From: Chloroflexota bacterium
Lineage (GTDB): Bacteria > Chloroflexota > Dehalococcoidia > Bin125
DNA: 64,000 nt
NCBI GenBank assembly: GCA_009838915.1
Contig: VXQT01000006.1
Location: 1 to 64,000, forward strand
Direction of reading: 5' to 3'
The position numbers were made by a program, and so were the translations under genes. The notes under the pieces are model-generated. The model saw nothing but the letters and a program-made list of their open reading frames with translations, was not told where the DNA came from and ran no database searches. Every line of letters starts with the position of its first letter. Position 1 is the first letter of the stretch. Below, one piece after another: positions 90 to 37,443 of this stretch.

Positions 90-398
90 ATGGCTCGGCA
101 GAAGATTCGCATCCGGCTCAAGGCGTACGACCATCGCGTCCTGGATGAGTCGGCCGCCCACATCCTGGACACGGCGGAGAAGACTGGGGCCGGCGTAGCC
201 GGACCGATCCCGCTGCCGACCGAGATTCGCAAGTACACGGTGATTCGTTCGCCCTTCGTTCACAAGGACGGGCGCGAACAGTTCGAGATTCGCACGCACA
301 AGCGGATCATCGACATCATCGAACCCACCGGCAGGACCGTCGATTCGCTGATGCGGCTGCAACTGTCGTCCGGCGTCGACGTTGAGATCAAGCTCTAA
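90..398 (+). CDS. rpsJ: 30S ribosomal protein S10
   Basis: 102 residues, the usual length for S10. It opens with the family pattern [16 protein letters not shown] and carries [20 protein letters not shown] and the RTHKR segment in the middle. S10 sits in the head of the 30S subunit and is also the NusE partner in antitermination. A GAGAGA stretch lies shortly before the ATG. It is the first gene of the S10 cluster and lies 2 bp from rplC. Confidence 0.97.
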
Positions 399-400
399 CC

Positions 401-1051
401 ATGGCGATACCGGGCCTCCTAGGCAAGAAGTTGGGCATGGTCCAGGTGATCGGCGAGGACGGGGCGGTCGTCGGCTGCACCGTGCTCGAGGTCGGGCCGT
501 GTCCGGTGACGCAGATCATGACGGAATCGCGCGACGGCTACTCGGGCGTACAGGTGGGGTTCGGCGAGTCGCCGCCCTGGCGGATCAACAACGCCGAGCG
601 CGGCCACACAGGCGCCAACGGACCGCTCAAGCACCTGGCCGTGTTCCACGCCGGCGCGGAGGAAGTGGGCGAGCTTGAAGTGGGCACGGTGGTCAGCGCG
701 AGCGAAGTCTTCTCGGTGGGCGACCGGGTGGACGTCCAGGGGGTATCGAAGGGCAAGGGTTTTGCCGGCGTGGTCAAGCGGCACGGGTTCCGCGGCGGTC
801 CACGGACGCACGGTCAGAGCGACCGTCACCGAGCTCCGGGCTCGGTGGGCGCCGGGACGACGCCGGGCCGCGTGCTGAAAGGCACGAGGATGGCCGGGCG
901 GATGGGCGGCAAGACGACGACCTCGATGAATCTGGAAGTCGTGAATGTAAATGCGGATCGGCACCTGGTCTATATCAAGGGATCAGTGCCGGGCGCGACA
1001 AATGGTCTGGTTCGGATTCGGCAGACGAAGCGGCGAGGCGGCAAGCGATGA
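401..1051 (+). CDS. rplC: 50S ribosomal protein L3
   Basis: 216 residues. It begins GLLGKKLGMVQV and carries the L3 signature KGKGFAGVVKRHGF, followed by PGSVGAGTTPGRVLKG and TRMAGRMG, the loop that reaches toward the peptidyl transferase centre. L3 is an early 50S assembly protein. Its stop overlaps the rplD start by four bases (ATGA), so the two are translationally coupled. Confidence 0.97.
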   Translation: MAIPGLLGKKLGMVQVIGEDGAVVGCTVLEVGPCPVTQIMTESRDGYSGVQVGFGESPPWRINNAERGHTGANGPLKHLAVFHAGAEEVGELEVGTVVSASEVFSVGDRVDVQGVSKGKGFAGVVKRHGFRGGPRTHGQSDRHRAPGSVGAGTTPGRVLKGTRMAGRMGGKTTTSMNLEVVNVNADRHLVYIKGSVPGATNGLVRIRQTKRRGGKR

Positions 1052-1707
1052 GACTCCCCGTGATCGACGGACAGGGCAACGCAGCCGGCGAGATCGAGGC
1101 GGACGACTCGGTGTTCGGCATCGAGCCGAACCTGGCGGTGGTGCATCAGGCGGTCACTGCACAGCGGGCCAACGCGCGGCAAGGGAACAGTTCGACACTG
1201 AATCGGTCGGGCATCCGCCAGGCGTCGAAGAAGACGGGGCGGCAAAAGGGAGGCGGACGTGCGCGCATGGGCACGCCGTCGTCGCCGACGCGGATTGGCG
1301 GCGCAGTGGCTCACGGGCCGCATCCTCGTTCCTACCGCCAGCGGCTGCCGAAGCGCATGCGACGGCTGGCGATTCGCTCACTGCTCTCGCAGCGTGCGTC
1401 GGAGGGTGGCGTGATTGTCGCCGCGTCCGATGTGGAGTTTGATGCGAAGACGTCGGCGATGTCGAGTCTATGTCGGGCGCTGGGCGTCGAGCGGACGGCG
1501 CTGGTGGTCTCGGACGGTGTTGATGAGGCGTTGGTTCGGGGAACCCAGAATCTGCCCAACATCCAGGCGATGCCGGCCCAGACGCTGAACAGCTACCTGA
1601 TTCTGACGCACGATCAGTTGATCATGACCGAGGCTGCCGTGCGCCGCTGCGAGGCGATGTGGGCGGTGGGTTCGGATGGCGCAGACGAGGAGGCGGGCGA
1701 TGCCTAA
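1048..1707 (+). CDS. rplD: 50S ribosomal protein L4
   Basis: 219 residues, slightly longer than the usual roughly 200. The conserved basic loop KKTGRQKGGGRARMGTPSSP, which lines the peptide exit tunnel, is at about residues 54-73. The globular part follows with LPKRMRRLAIRSLLS. In many bacteria L4 represses its own operon through the S10 leader. No such leader can be judged here because the upstream gap is only 39 bp. Confidence 0.97.
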   Translation: MRLPVIDGQGNAAGEIEADDSVFGIEPNLAVVHQAVTAQRANARQGNSSTLNRSGIRQASKKTGRQKGGGRARMGTPSSPTRIGGAVAHGPHPRSYRQRLPKRMRRLAIRSLLSQRASEGGVIVAASDVEFDAKTSAMSSLCRALGVERTALVVSDGVDEALVRGTQNLPNIQAMPAQTLNSYLILTHDQLIMTEAAVRRCEAMWAVGSDGADEEAGDA

Positions 1708-30821: not shown

Positions 30822-32531
30822 TCAGCGCGCGCCGCGGATGAGTTGGCCGGGGCGGGCGCCGGTTTCCTCGCCGTGGCGGGAGATCACCTCGCCGCTGACA
30901 ATCGTGGCGACGTAGCCTCTCGACTTCTGGATCAGGCGCATCGCGTCGGTAGGGAGGTCGTGGACGGCCTCGGGTTGTTCGAGCTGCAGGGCGTCGTAGT
31001 CGATGACGTTGACGTCGCCCTTCTTGCCCACTTCGAGCGTGCCGCGGTCGCCGAGTCCGTACAGCTGCGCGGTGTCGTAGGTCATGCGCTTGACGACCCA
31101 TTCGAGCGGCAGGGTCTCGCCACGGCTGCGGCCGCGTGACCAGTGAGTGAGCATGAACGTGGGCATGCCGGCGTCGCAGATCACGCCGCAGTGCGCGCCA
31201 CCGTCGGAGAGCCCCATGGCGACGCGCGGGTGAAGCATCATCTCGCGCGTGGCGTCGAGGTTGTTGTGGGCGTAGTTGAACAGCGGCGCGAAGAGCACCT
31301 GCTCTCCGTCGCCCTGGCTGAGGAAGTCGTAGGCGAACTCGAGCGGCGTCTGACCGGCGGCCTCGGCGCGCGCCGCGACCGACTCCTCTGCTGTCGGCTC
31401 GTAGTTGGGCGGGTTGGACATCGGGTAGAGCTTGTGCCACATGATGAAGCCGAGCGCGGCGTCGGGCGCCTCGACCTCGGCGAGGATCTGCTCCTTGCGC
31501 TGCGGGTCGCGCATCGCTTCGGCGCGCACAGCCCAGTCGAGGTCGTCCAGCTCGCGGTAGCTGGGCGAGTGGATGAAGGGGTGGCGTCCGCGTAGCGTGA
31601 GCAGCAGCGAGATGCCGCGCGCGGCGACCTGCGGATATAGCTCCGCGCCGTCTTCGAGCGCTTCGAGCGAACGGTCGAGCGCGTCGCGCCAGGCCTCGGG
31701 GTCGTTGTCGAACTGGACCATGGCGAAGCTGACCGGGCGCTCGATCTCGGCCGAGAGCTTGCGCATCCACGCGATTTCGAGCTCGGGCGCGTTGGCGTCA
31801 TCGCCGGTGACGCCGGCCGGGGCGACCTCGTAGACGCCGGCGCCGACTTCCTTAAGCGCGCGTCCGATGCCGAACAGCTCGTCCTCGGCGGCGAAGGTGC
31901 CGGGCACGGGCTCGCCGTCGATGGCGCGGTGGGCCAGGGTGCGCGATGTGCTGAAGCCGAGGGCGCCGGCTTCCAGCCCTTCCTTGACGATTGCCGCCAT
32001 CTCCTGGATGTCCTCGGGGTTGGCGTCCTCGTTGCGCGCGCCGCGGTCGCCCATCACGTAGGCACGGACTGCGCCGTGCGGCACCTGGGTGCCGATGTCG
32101 ATCGCCTTGGGCAGCGTGTCGAGGAAGTCGAGGTACTCGGGGAAGGACTCCCAGTTCCACTGGATGCCCTCGGCCAGGGCGGATCCGGGGATGTCCTCGA
32201 CGCCCTCCATCAGGCCGATCAGCCAGTCGCGGCGGTTGGGCGCGGCGGGCGCGAAGCCAACGCCGCAGTTGCCGAAGACGACCGTGGTGACGCCGTGCCA
32301 GAAGGAGGGCGTGAGCAGCGGGTCCCACGTGATCTGGCCGTCGAAGTGGGTGTGGATGTCGACGAAGCCCGGCGTGACCAGCAGGCCGTCGGCGTCGATT
32401 TCCTCACGGCCGATGTCGTTGATTTCACCGACGGCGGCGACGACGCCGTCCGAGATGGCGACGTCGGCCTTGCGGGCGGGCGCGCCGGTGCCGTCGACGA
32501 CGAGTCCGTTGCGGATGACGAGATCGAGCAT
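30822..32531 (-). CDS. Amidohydrolase of the N-acyl-D-amino-acid deacylase family
   Basis: 569 residues from the ATG at 32531. It opens with LDLVIRNGLVVDGTGAP and has the metal-binding GFVDIHTHFDGQITWDP at about residue 60, the HxH of the amidohydrolase barrel. NCGVGFAP follows, and GGAHCGVICDAGMPTF and EVGKKGDVNVIDYD close the family pattern. Such enzymes hydrolyse N-acyl-D-amino acids, dihydropyrimidine-like or related amides. The exact substrate is not known. Its neighbours on the same strand include a damaged transporter. Confidence 0.9.
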   Translation of the reverse strand: MLDLVIRNGLVVDGTGAPARKADVAISDGVVAAVGEINDIGREEIDADGLLVTPGFVDIHTHFDGQITWDPLLTPSFWHGVTTVVFGNCGVGFAPAAPNRRDWLIGLMEGVEDIPGSALAEGIQWNWESFPEYLDFLDTLPKAIDIGTQVPHGAVRAYVMGDRGARNEDANPEDIQEMAAIVKEGLEAGALGFSTSRTLAHRAIDGEPVPGTFAAEDELFGIGRALKEVGAGVYEVAPAGVTGDDANAPELEIAWMRKLSAEIERPVSFAMVQFDNDPEAWRDALDRSLEALEDGAELYPQVAARGISLLLTLRGRHPFIHSPSYRELDDLDWAVRAEAMRDPQRKEQILAEVEAPDAALGFIMWHKLYPMSNPPNYEPTAEESVAARAEAAGQTPLEFAYDFLSQGDGEQVLFAPLFNYAHNNLDATREMMLHPRVAMGLSDGGAHCGVICDAGMPTFMLTHWSRGRSRGETLPLEWVVKRMTYDTAQLYGLGDRGTLEVGKKGDVNVIDYDALQLEQPEAVHDLPTDAMRLIQKSRGYVATIVSGEVISRHGEETGARPGQLIRGAR

Positions 32532-32598
32532 GGGGAAGTCCTTCATATGGCCGATAGGTGTCGCGGTAGGCACAGTATGGCAGATCGGACTGAACCGA

Positions 32599-34299
32599 CT
32601 ATGCTTCTCGCGCTCCGTTGGACTGAGCGAAGCGGTCGAGCTTGAGTACTTCTGAGCGGGCGATCTCGTAGGCCGCTTCGGTGTTGGCGGCGAAGTGGGT
32701 GTCAGGCGCGTCGTTGAGTTCGATTAGGCCTCGAAGCATCCGTCCGACGTTGGGCGCCAGCGACGCCACGATCACAACGAGACGCCCGTTCTGTTGTCCC
32801 ACACGAAGCAGCTCGGCAATCATTGTGGCGCCGGAGTCATCGATCACCCTGGTGCGCGAGGCGTCGAGGATGGCGATCCGGTGGCCTTCCAGATCGGGGC
32901 GCAGGGAGAGCTTGAGCTGTCTCGCCGATGCGGCGGTCACGCGTTCGGGTAGCACGATCAGACCGCAATGCGCGTCATATGGGTCTCGCCTGGAGATTTC
33001 GGAGCCGCGGAACAGCACCACGTCGAGGAGTGGAACGGAGATCAGCCCGGCGAGTTCATGCCGTTCATCTCGACGGGAGTTGAGCATCAGCGTGAGGATC
33101 GCGCCGACCAGCACGGCATCGACAAAGCTGACGAAGACCGTGCAGAGCATGGTCGCGACCATGCTGAAGGCGTATGAGTTTTCCATCCGCGGAATGCAGC
33201 GGAGGAAGCGCCAATCAACCATCTGCCACGCAGTGGCGATCATGATGAACGAGATGATCGCCAGTGGGATCTGCTGAATCACACCCTCAAGCACTGTGAC
33301 GGCGGCGATCACGACGAGGAGCACAGCCACGCAGCCGACGGCGGTGCGTCCGCCGTTGTAGGTGTAGACGAAGCTGGCCGGCCCGATTCCACCGGGCAGA
33401 CCTCCGAGCGACGACACGGCGACGGTACCGAGTCCCAGGCCGAAGGTGAACCGATTCGGATGATGGTCGGATCCGCTGACCAGGTCACACTTGATCGCCC
33501 CGGTCAGCGCCACGAGGGTGTTGAGCAGTGCCACGAGGATGGCGGGCTCAATGATCTCGACGAAGAGATCAGCCGTGAGCCCGGCAAACTGGAGTCCCGG
33601 GGGTTCGATCGTCAGCGACGGGACGGGCGGCGCGGCGCCGAACCAGATTGCTCCCAGCAAGGTTCCCAGAATGAGGATGATCAGTGCGCTCGGCAGCTTC
33701 GACGCGATCCTGCCGCGCCAGGCGAGGGCGATGGCGAGGCTGATCAGAGTGAGGGCGACAGCATCGCCGTTGCGGTTGCCGATTTGTCCGATCGCCTCGT
33801 CCACCACCGGAACCACGCCTGAAGTGGTCAGCTCGATCCCAATGGCATGCCCGAGTTGACTGACCAACAAGAGGATGCCGAGGCCAGAGAAGAATCCCGT
33901 CAGCACCTAGTGAGGCAGATAGGCGATGTAGCGACCCAGACCCAGAGCGGCGAAGACCATCTGGATGACGCCGGCCAGCACGCCGATCGCCACGGCCTCG
34001 ATGGCCGAGTCGCTGTATTGGGCGAGAATCATTGAGACAGCGAGGGCCGGAGACGTGAGGATGCCTCGCCCGCCGCCGACGATGGCGGATGTCAGGGCAA
34101 GCCCGATCGAGCCGTACATGCCGGCGACCGGTCCGAGGCCGGAGAGGATGCCAAATCCCATGGCAAAGGGGATCGAGGTCACGCCGGCGAGCAGACCGCC
34201 GATCAAGTCCCCGCGCAGATCGTCAAGACCGTAACCCGGTGGTCGTAGGCGCAGCGAAGGCCTCAATGGCCGGCCCGTCGGCGACATAACTACCCGCAC
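32599..34299 (-). pseudogene. SulP-family anion transporter with STAS domain, interrupted by in-frame TAG
   Basis: Two readings join in one frame. Residues 1-130 (34299 down to 33910) hold DDLRGDLIGGLLAGVTSIPF, GPVAGMYGSIGLALTSAIVG and the segment ending GLGRYIAYLPH. TAG at 33907-33909 follows. The frame then goes on with VLTGFFSGLGILLLVSQLGH and 435 residues that contain the remaining membrane spans and a C-terminal STAS domain (IAILDASRTRVIDDSGATMI). The product would be a 566-residue SulP transporter for sulfate, bicarbonate or another anion. A true nonsense mutation, read-through or a sequencing error are the options. Confidence 0.85.
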
Positions 34300-34499: not shown

Positions 34500-34844
34500 C
34501 TAGGGACGCCTGAGTTCGGGGGCTACGGCCAGGAAGGGGAAGAGGGCGATGAAAGTGAGCAGGCTGGCGAGTCCCCAGCGGACGGGGTCGCGGCCCTTGA
34601 TCCGGGCGAGCCAGGCGGCGAGGGCGGCGTAGCCGACCCAGAGCACCCCCCAGGTCCAGCCGACAGTCTCCGCGAAGTCGTCGGGTTCTTCTTCCTCAAC
34701 GCGGACCTCGGCAGTCGTCTGATCCTCGTTGTTGTCGTCGACGTACATGACGAGCACGACGATGAATGGGATCCAGATTGCGTAGAGCAGGATCGCGACA
34801 GCAAGCCGGTCGCGGGGCCAGAGGAGGTTGCGGAGAGCTTGCAT
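34500..34844 (-). CDS. Small three-span membrane protein, unknown
   Basis: 114 residues. Hydrophobic segments lie at about 14-36 (LAVAILLYAIWIPFIVVLVM), 63-82 (WGVLWVGYAALAAWLA) and 90-108 (LASLLTFIALFPFLAVA). Between the first and second is an acidic loop (VEEEEPDDFAE). No family is recognised. The regular pattern of spans and the isolated position support a real gene, but there is no functional clue. Confidence 0.6.
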   Translation of the reverse strand: MQALRNLLWPRDRLAVAILLYAIWIPFIVVLVMYVDDNNEDQTTAEVRVEEEEPDDFAETVGWTWGVLWVGYAALAAWLARIKGRDPVRWGLASLLTFIALFPFLAVAPELRRP

Positions 34845-34857
34845 ACGCCGAGCGTAG

Positions 34858-34937: not shown

Positions 34938-35900
34938 CTAACGCTGGTGGACGAGGGGCTCGCCGGGGATGGGGGAGCGGGCGTGGACGACGTAGTCGCT
35001 GCGGATCGAGCCGATGTAGAGGTCGCACATGTCGTCGCCGCCCCAACTGACGTTGGTGGGCGCCTGCATGATCTCGCCCTCGAGGTCCTCGATCATCGTG
35101 ACGACCTCGAACTGCGGAGTGATCGCAACGACCTTGTTCGACATCGGCAGGGTGACCCAGAGGTTGCCCTCCTGGTCGAAGCCGCAGCCGTCGGTGAGGC
35201 CGAGTTCTCCGCGCTGTTCGGCGCTCAGCGGCCGCATGGCGGCGAGATCGGCGACCGACTTGCCGAGCTGCGGGCCGTAGACCTCCGGCTCGCCAAGCGA
35301 ACCGTCGGCGTGGATCGGGTAGCGCAGGACGTGGCAGCCGGTGGTCGAGCAGACGTAGGCTTGTTCCTCGCGCGGGTCGAGCGTGATCCCGTTGGCGAAC
35401 TCGATCTCGGTGGCGAGCATGGTCAGCGAACCGTCGGTCTCGATTCGGAAGAGGAAACCGTCGGGATCGCCGGAGAAGGCGTCGCCGCCCGAGCGCGAGG
35501 TCGAGTGCGTGACCCAGATCCGTCCCCGGGAGTCGACGTGCGGATAGTTGGAGGCGACCAACGGGATGCCGTCGATCTGGTCGGCGAGGATCTCGATCTC
35601 GCCGGTGTCGACATCGAGCCGCTGCACGGGTCCGGTACCACTATCGTCGGAACCCTGGCCGTCGAGTCCGCCGACGTTGGCGATGATGATCCGGCCCTCG
35701 GTGTCCATGTTGTTGCCGTTGGGCGCGCCGCCGGCGTTGCCGACTCGGTTGAGCGTGCCGTCGGGCAGCGCCTCGGCCGCCGCCGAGGCCTGGTCCGACA
35801 TCCAGACGCGGCCGTCGCGGGAGACGACGACATCCTCGGGTCGCTGGACGCCGAGTCCGACTTTGCTGAGCTGGTCGTTGCGGATTGGAGTGAGGGGCAT
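34938..35900 (-). CDS. SMP-30/gluconolactonase-like beta-propeller protein
   Basis: 320 residues from the ATG at 35900. It contains repeated blade-like blocks with Asp and Gly turns: RPEDVVVSRDGRVWMSDQAS, PHVDSRGRIWVTHSTSR, FANGITLDPREEQAYVCSTT and GCGFDQEGNLWVTLPMSN. The order of Glu, Asn and Asp positions fits the SMP-30 family, which hydrolyses sugar lactones or related esters with a divalent metal ion. It is 13 bp after the carboxylesterase gene, so the pair is likely co-transcribed. Confidence 0.85.
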   Translation of the reverse strand: MPLTPIRNDQLSKVGLGVQRPEDVVVSRDGRVWMSDQASAAAEALPDGTLNRVGNAGGAPNGNNMDTEGRIIIANVGGLDGQGSDDSGTGPVQRLDVDTGEIEILADQIDGIPLVASNYPHVDSRGRIWVTHSTSRSGGDAFSGDPDGFLFRIETDGSLTMLATEIEFANGITLDPREEQAYVCSTTGCHVLRYPIHADGSLGEPEVYGPQLGKSVADLAAMRPLSAEQRGELGLTDGCGFDQEGNLWVTLPMSNKVVAITPQFEVVTMIEDLEGEIMQAPTNVSWGGDDMCDLYIGSIRSDYVVHARSPIPGEPLVHQR

Positions 35901-35913
35901 GGGTTGTTCCTCT

Positions 35914-37443
35914 CTACGAGATGACGTTGTCCCAGACGCTGAGTTCGGGGCCTCGCCAGTCGTGTTCGACGCGGATGTTGGGGCCGAGGACCAGGAGCGG
36001 CTTGCTCTGCGTGTCCCAGACCGGCGCTTGGGCGGCGTCTGAGTTGGGATTGCCGGTGCGGGCGAAGGCGAGCCAGGTGTCCATGGTCGCCTCGGCGAAG
36101 GCGTCGGCCTCGGGTCCCGAGCCGGCGAACTCGGGCGCAACGTCGTGCGTGCCGAAGACAAAGGGCAGCTCGAGCGCGTGGCAGGAGCCCAGCGCGCCGT
36201 TCATGCCGGGCGATTTCCAGTCGAACAGGTATGCGAAGGTGGGCGCGCGCGTGGTCTGGGCGTCAGCCAGGCGCAGGCCGGGGACGCGAAGCATCACGTC
36301 GCCGATCGCGGCGACGAAGATTTCGTTCGCCGAGTCGTCCTCGCCGCGTTCGCGCCGCGCGGCGCGGTAGCTGGCGTAGGCCGACTCGCCGTCGGGGTGG
36401 ATCATGCCGAAGACCGCGATCGCCGCCTCGTCAGTCATCGGCTCGGCGGGACCGGCGGCGGCGAGGAGCTTCATCTCTTCATCAAGCGATCCGACCAGCG
36501 TCGGGATGCCGTCGGCCGAGCCCTGGCGGATGTGATCGATCGGCAGGACCGAGAGGAACTCGCCGTCGATCACGGGCTGGAACGGCATCTGCGGGGTCGC
36601 GGATGCGCCGGCGTCGGCCATGTCGGAGGCGGACTCGGCGCTGGCGATCGGATCGACCGCGACCGAGGCAGCGAGGATGTCGGCGGGGTCGGCAGCCATG
36701 AGCGCGTCGACGTCGTCGGGATCGACGCCGAGCGCCCGGCAGAACTTGAGCGCGGTGGCGTTGGTTTCCTCGACGCTGAGCGCGTTGTGTCCGGCGCCGC
36801 TCTGCGGGATCGCCTTCTGGAACAGACCGGCCGCCTCGGGCGAGGCCATCAGCGAGGCGACGCTCATGCCGCCGGCCGACTCGCCGAAGATGGTGACGTT
36901 GCCGGGGTCGCCGCCGAAGCCGGCGATGTTGTCCCGGACCCACTTCAATGCCGCCACCTGGTCGCGCATGCCGAAGTTGGTCTCGCCTAGCGCGGGCAGG
37001 TTGAGGAATCCGAGCGCGCCGAGCCGGTAGTTGATCGTGACGATCACGACATCGCCGCGCGCGGCGAGGTTGGCGCCGTCGTAGTAGTCCTCGCTGCCCG
37101 AGCCGATCGTGAACGCGCCGCCGTGGATCCAGACCATGACAGGCCGGGCGGCATCGTCAAGTCCGGGCGTCCAGACGTTGAGATAGAGACAGTCCTCGCT
37201 CTGTGGCTGCGGCGGATCGGAGACCGGCAGCAGCGCTTCCAGCATCTCGTTGGGCGCCTGCAGGGAGATCGGTCCGAACGTCTTGGCTTCGCGGACGCCG
37301 TCCCAGGGCTCGACCGGCTGCGGAGCCTTGAAGCGAAGGTCGCCGACCGGCGGGGCGGCGAACGGGATGCCTCGGAAGACGCAGAGGCCGTGCTCTTCGC
37401 TTCCTTCGACTCTGCCTGCGATGGTCTGTGCGATGGCGCTCAT
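35914..37443 (-). CDS. Carboxylesterase type B
   Basis: 509 residues. GLCVFRGIPFAAPPVGDLRF, EDCLYLNVWTPG and the nucleophile motif IFGESAGGMSVASLMAS (about residue 180) are the family signatures. WIHGGAFTIGSGSEDYY forms the oxyanion hole, and the catalytic His lies in GALGSCHALELPFVFG. No signal peptide. It cleaves carboxylic esters, substrate unknown, and is paired with SMP-30. Confidence 0.93.
   Translation of the reverse strand: MSAIAQTIAGRVEGSEEHGLCVFRGIPFAAPPVGDLRFKAPQPVEPWDGVREAKTFGPISLQAPNEMLEALLPVSDPPQPQSEDCLYLNVWTPGLDDAARPVMVWIHGGAFTIGSGSEDYYDGANLAARGDVVIVTINYRLGALGFLNLPALGETNFGMRDQVAALKWVRDNIAGFGGDPGNVTIFGESAGGMSVASLMASPEAAGLFQKAIPQSGAGHNALSVEETNATALKFCRALGVDPDDVDALMAADPADILAASVAVDPIASAESASDMADAGASATPQMPFQPVIDGEFLSVLPIDHIRQGSADGIPTLVGSLDEEMKLLAAAGPAEPMTDEAAIAVFGMIHPDGESAYASYRAARRERGEDDSANEIFVAAIGDVMLRVPGLRLADAQTTRAPTFAYLFDWKSPGMNGALGSCHALELPFVFGTHDVAPEFAGSGPEADAFAEATMDTWLAFARTGNPNSDAAQAPVWDTQSKPLLVLGPNIRVEHDWRGPELSVWDNVIS

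What the first reader, a model, noticed from the sequence alone, without database searches (positions are those of the whole stretch)
33907..33909. Single amber codon interrupts an otherwise intact SulP transporter
Upstream and downstream parts are in the same frame and join across TAG without loss of conserved residues (GRYIAYLPH, stop, VLTGFFSGLGI). The distal part begins with GTG right after the TAG. The gene could be freshly inactivated, read through, made as two pieces, or be a base error: TCG, TGG, CAG and TAC all lie one change away.
Basis: partly seen in the sequence, partly recalled or inferred. Interest (0 to 1): 0.52.

Follow-up and report, generated by a model that had tools for sequence, protein, structure and literature searches.

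The report
Freshly interrupted accessory anion-transporter gene
In one assembled bacterial genome, a dispensable anion-transporter gene carries one stop codon in the middle; close relatives have an uninterrupted copy or no copy at all, so it looks like an ordinary recent loss-of-function change or a base error, not a new way of reading genes.

Summary
On the minus strand, TAG at 33907-33909 is codon 127 of a SulP (Pfam Sulfate_transp) frame, ATG 34287 to TAG 32599, with complementary parts of the Pfam model on each side. Of 36 homologous places aligned from other genomes, 0 have a stop there; 23 have serine, including all 5 same-genus orthologues. It is the only stop among 562 codons, there is no indel, and the lineage shows no relaxed selection, so the stop is very recent or not real. 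The GTG after the stop is the ordinary valine codon of all 5 orthologues, with no ribosome-binding sequence before it, so it did not evolve as a restart. No amber-suppressor tRNA was found among 42 tRNA genes, release factor 1 is present, and TAG ends 25 of 86 conserved ORFs of the contig, so read-through is unlikely. The gene is accessory: 7 of 7 assessable congeners without the orthologue lack it cleanly at the same site. Best explanation: a fresh nonsense mutation in a dispensable transporter. A base error in the assembly is the main rival and cannot be excluded without reads. Ordinary; low interest.

The parts
33910..34287 (-). Proximal part of the SulP frame, 126 codons, ATG start
   Evidence: PF00916 positions 1-112 of 380
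33907..33909 (-). In-frame TAG, codon 127; serine in all 5 orthologues
32599..33906 (-). Distal part, 435 codons plus terminal TAG (32599-32601); first codon GTG is an ordinary valine codon in relatives; rest of the transport domain and a weak STAS_2 match
   Evidence: PF00916 positions 115-379, STAS_2 below cut-off
30822..32573 (-). Conserved downstream neighbour, amidohydrolase family (Amidohydro_3); one border of the SulP site in relatives
34503..34847 (-). Small conserved upstream ORF (115 aa), other border of the SulP site
   Evidence: Translated and matched in 11 of 12 loci compared
34938..36161 (-). SMP-30/gluconolactonase-like gene (SGL), conserved neighbour

Best explanation
A single substitution recently turned a serine codon at the entry of a transmembrane segment (topology by recall) into an amber stop in the only SulP-family anion transporter gene found in this genome. 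Translation ends after 126 residues, and the 435-codon remainder has no evolved start, so no working transporter is expected. The loss is tolerated because the gene is accessory in this genus: at the same chromosomal site, between a small ORF and an amidohydrolase gene, some species carry it and others do not. Shown: the stop, serine in relatives, a single copy, the patchy presence, no relaxed selection before the stop, no suppressor tRNA found. Inferred: that the stop is real in the organism, that the product is inactive, and that it is recent.
For: Only one internal stop and no gap in 562 codons. 0 of 36 aligned homologous places have a stop there; 5 of 5 orthologues have serine, codon TCG in 4 and TCC in 1, so TAG is one substitution from the commonest form. 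Pairwise dN/dS to the nearest orthologue 0.10. Lineage-specific changes: 30 nonsynonymous (stop excluded) to 98 synonymous, against 34 to 61 in the sister, so no sign of relaxation; at most about 7-8% of the branch could have been neutral under assumed baselines of 0.27-0.30. The orthologue is present in 5 of 14 congeners; 7 of the other 9 have a resolved site with both borders and no SulP. No suppressor tRNA found, RF1 present.
Against: A very fresh mutation and a base error leave the same trace. Only one genome of the species is held and no reads could be seen. The gene is otherwise immaculate, which is also what an error would give. The baseline chosen for the neutral-fraction bound is an assumption, and no bound could be set with the sister's own ratio of 0.56, which is already higher than observed.
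Confidence: 0.68

Rival explanations
1. Base error in the assembled consensus, or a minority variant picked by the assembler; the living population has an intact gene.
For: Everything else in the gene is intact and under purifying selection; one substitution suffices; the genome is in 38 contigs with 95% completeness and 1.8% contamination, and two of its relatives are metagenome-assembled genomes by their record titles.
Against: No second interrupted gene among the conserved genes of 104 kb of this contig, so errors are not common here; the gene hit is an accessory one, as expected for a real tolerated mutation.
Confidence: 0.23
2. Two-piece expression: release at TAG and reinitiation at the adjoining GTG give two fragments that assemble into a transporter.
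For: GTG follows the stop directly, and the two parts match complementary parts of PF00916.
Against: GTG is at that place in all 5 uninterrupted orthologues, so it needs no explanation as a start; no Shine-Dalgarno-like stretch in the 30 bases before it (by eye); folding of the 107 bases from GTG on is unremarkable, z -0.81; none of the 36 other places aligned is split there.
Confidence: 0.05
3. Amber read-through or suppression restores a full-length protein.
For: Frame kept and sequence conserved on both sides.
Against: 42 tRNA genes found, none with anticodon CTA; RF1 present; TAG is the natural stop of 25 of 86 conserved ORF ends on the contig, and of this gene. The genome is about 95% complete, so an unseen tRNA is possible.
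Confidence: 0.04

Closest known systems
Recent nonsense allele / unitary pseudogene (ordinary gene inactivation)
   Same: One substitution makes a stop in an otherwise conserved accessory gene; relatives are intact or lack the gene.
   Different: No secondary decay yet; not shown to be fixed or expressed.
SulP/SLC26 anion transporters; nearest solved sequence 6ki1 (BicA by my recall, named 'Low affinity sulfate transporter' in the table), also 5iof/5da0
   Same: Aligns over residues 23-392 with 6ki1, E 5e-36; the residue there is threonine in 6ki1 and serine in 5iof and 5da0.
   Different: Interrupted by TAG at codon 127; substrate unknown.
Translational read-through or pyrrolysine/suppressor recoding of TAG
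   Same: In-frame TAG in a conserved gene.
   Different: No suppressor tRNA found, RF1 present, serine in relatives, TAG a common terminator.

Membership tests
SulP family (PF00916) | Match to the Sulfate_transp model over its length | tested here: met
   Read with X at the stop: positions 1-379 of 380, 135.5 bits against a cut-off of 23.2
SulP family (PF00916) | C-terminal STAS domain (usual, not universal; by recall) | tested here: inconclusive
   STAS_2 24.5 bits, below the cut-off of 29.2
SulP family (PF00916) | Anion transport activity | not testable with these tools
   No experiment possible
Recent nonsense pseudogene | Intact orthologues in near relatives at the same site | tested here: met
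   5 congeners, same neighbours
Recent nonsense pseudogene | Inactivating change present in the organism, not an error | not testable with these tools
   No reads and no second genome of the species available
Amber read-through or recoding | tRNA with anticodon CTA | tested here: not met
   None among 42 tRNA genes from loci over 41 Rfam places; genome about 95% complete
Amber read-through or recoding | RF1 lost, or TAG rare as a terminator | tested here: not met
   RF1 at 494 bits against 423; TAG at 25 of 86 conserved ORF ends
Split gene with reinitiation | Start site that arose with, or is kept for, the distal piece | tested here: not met
   GTG present in all 5 uninterrupted orthologues; no Shine-Dalgarno-like stretch

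The most novel reading that the evidence does not exclude
The amber codon is real and fixed, and the gene still works, as two co-translated fragments that assemble or by unusual amber decoding, which would explain why the rest of the gene shows no decay.
Probability: 0.05. Interest if true: 0.5.

Novelty: new member of a known kind. Interest (0 to 1): 0.1.

Why it matters
Little on its own. If real, it is a snapshot of the first step of gene loss in an accessory transporter that comes and goes at one chromosomal site in this genus. It also shows that an in-frame stop followed directly by GTG can be pure coincidence, which relatives reveal at once.

Tried and rejected
Recurrent stops in relatives: one search lists internal stops for several homologues, which at first looked like recurring interruptions. 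On codon alignment each lies within the first 4 or last 6 residues of the match, that is at the natural ends. Rejected.

A second interrupted gene on the contig: one search gave 19 rows where both 30-residue flanks were at least 60% identical; 5 are SulP, one per relative. The other 14 fall in antisense or other frames of another ORF, in front of an ORF's start, or on a natural end (the ORF list was chosen by me). The one with the highest flanks (window 260, TGA) is antisense to a ribosomal S10-like gene (S10 recognised by recall). Rejected.

Pyrrolysine or selenocysteine: not searched as such; serine in relatives and the ordinary tRNA set made it unpromising.

RNA structure after the stop: nothing unusual. 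No Rfam family in the window.

Papers: one search for Chloroflexota, sponge and SulP (29 papers, listing only) and one for premature stops in sponge symbiont genomes (2 papers, listing only); none was opened and nothing is taken from them.

Full report
What is there. On the minus strand, TAG at window 33907-33909 is codon 127 of a reading frame that runs from ATG at 34287 to TAG at 32599-32601. The two sides match complementary parts of the Pfam Sulfate_transp model, positions 1-112 before the stop and 115-379 after it, each above the curated cut-off; a C-terminal STAS_2 match is below its cut-off.

Source. The window is contig C13, positions 1-64000, of a 2.87 Mb genome in 38 contigs, completeness 95.16 and contamination 1.78. 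Two same-genus genomes can be named through the genome collection: contig lengths tie G004 to JAPPJZ010000078.1 (RHO2_bin_60) and G002 to JAPPNI010000015.1 (RHO3_bin_68), both 'MAG: Chloroflexota bacterium'. That RHO stands for a sponge is my guess from recall.

Relatives. One search of 197 genomes gave matches in 32, own included, at 44 places. I aligned 37 of these 44 places, the window's own included; the 7 left out are four weak or partial ones (G033, G172, two of G101), a fragment that lacks the region (G009:C45) and two further copies of G025. None of the 36 others has a stop at this position: 23 serine, 5 proline, 4 threonine, 3 leucine, 1 alanine. The five same-genus orthologues, 75-88% identical, all have serine, with codon TCG in four and TCC in one. 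The stops that one search reports for other genomes lie at the natural ends of the genes. In solved SulP sequences the aligned residue is threonine (6ki1) or serine (5iof, 5da0).

The GTG. All five orthologues have GTG right after the serine codon. It is therefore an old valine codon, and its place next to the stop is coincidence. The 30 bases before it contain nothing like a Shine-Dalgarno sequence (by eye), and the RNA from GTG onward folds no better than shuffles, z -0.81.

Decoding. The tRNA family gave 41 places in the genome; ARAGORN on the loci covering them gave 42 tRNA genes, none with anticodon CTA (my count with overlapping loci merged). RF1 is present at 494 bits against a cut-off of 423. 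Among 86 distinct ORF ends of the contig that are conserved with a relative, 38 are TGA, 25 TAG and 23 TAA (ORFs were chosen mechanically, so some of the 86 may be shadow frames). TAG is thus an ordinary terminator, and general suppression would be costly. The genome is not complete, so a missing tRNA is possible.

Age. Against the nearest orthologue dN/dS is 0.10 over the gene, 0.06 before and 0.11 after the stop. Lineage-specific changes, with G002 as outgroup, are 30 nonsynonymous (stop excluded) to 98 synonymous in this genome and 34 to 61 in its sister G004 (Fisher p 0.05, in the direction of stronger constraint here). If the baseline ratio is 0.27-0.30, no more than 7-8% of the branch can have been neutral; with the sister's 0.56 as baseline no fraction fits, because the observed ratio is already lower. 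There is no gap in this copy, and 332 of 342 columns invariant in the five orthologues are kept. The stop is recent, or not real.

The gene is accessory. It is the only SulP match in this genome. The orthologue is in 5 of 14 other genomes of the genus; 4 more have only distant SulP genes and 5 have none. In 7 of the 9 without the orthologue the site could be read: amidohydrolase, the small ORF and the SGL gene are there, and SulP is not, by protein or DNA comparison. The other two, G003 and G012, could not be assessed (no close amidohydrolase match; contig end). On a tree of the amidohydrolase the presence of SulP needs 5 changes, at least 2 forced by well-supported branches. That tree puts this genome with G014, G010, G005 and G013 (95/97), whereas the SulP tree pairs it with G004 (97/99), and in G014 SulP sits on the other side of the small ORF. 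Gain, loss and exchange at one site fit; single-gene trees with many open forks do not settle it.

Neighbourhood check. Comparing ORFs of five relatives with 104 kb of the contig gave 19 rows with a stop between well-conserved flanks: 5 are this SulP stop, and the other 14 fall in other frames, before a start or at a natural end. SulP is the only interrupted gene seen there; the rest of the genome was not examined this way.

Verdict. A fresh nonsense mutation in a dispensable anion transporter is most likely (0.68); a consensus error is the main rival (0.23). Two-piece expression (0.05) and read-through (0.04) have tested features against them. It is an ordinary finding.

Noticed in passing
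window 32599-34287 and loci L124-L130, L002-L006: SulP is a presence/absence gene at one conserved site in the genus: 6 genomes with it (own included), 7 with a clean empty site; in G014 (L004) it sits on the other side of the small ORF, and its tree disagrees with the neighbour's.
   Followed up: partly
window 90-1707 (+): Ribosomal protein genes at the window start: an S10-like ORF (recognised by recall), then L3 and L4 (Pfam).
   Followed up: no
L127 2785-5120: In G001 the SGL gene appears as two tandem copies next to the empty SulP site.
   Followed up: no
L075 (G000:C13:66243-66410): A short release-factor-like match (RF1 model positions 224-279) in a 261-codon open frame on the same contig, perhaps an ArfB-type rescue factor (recall).
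   Followed up: no
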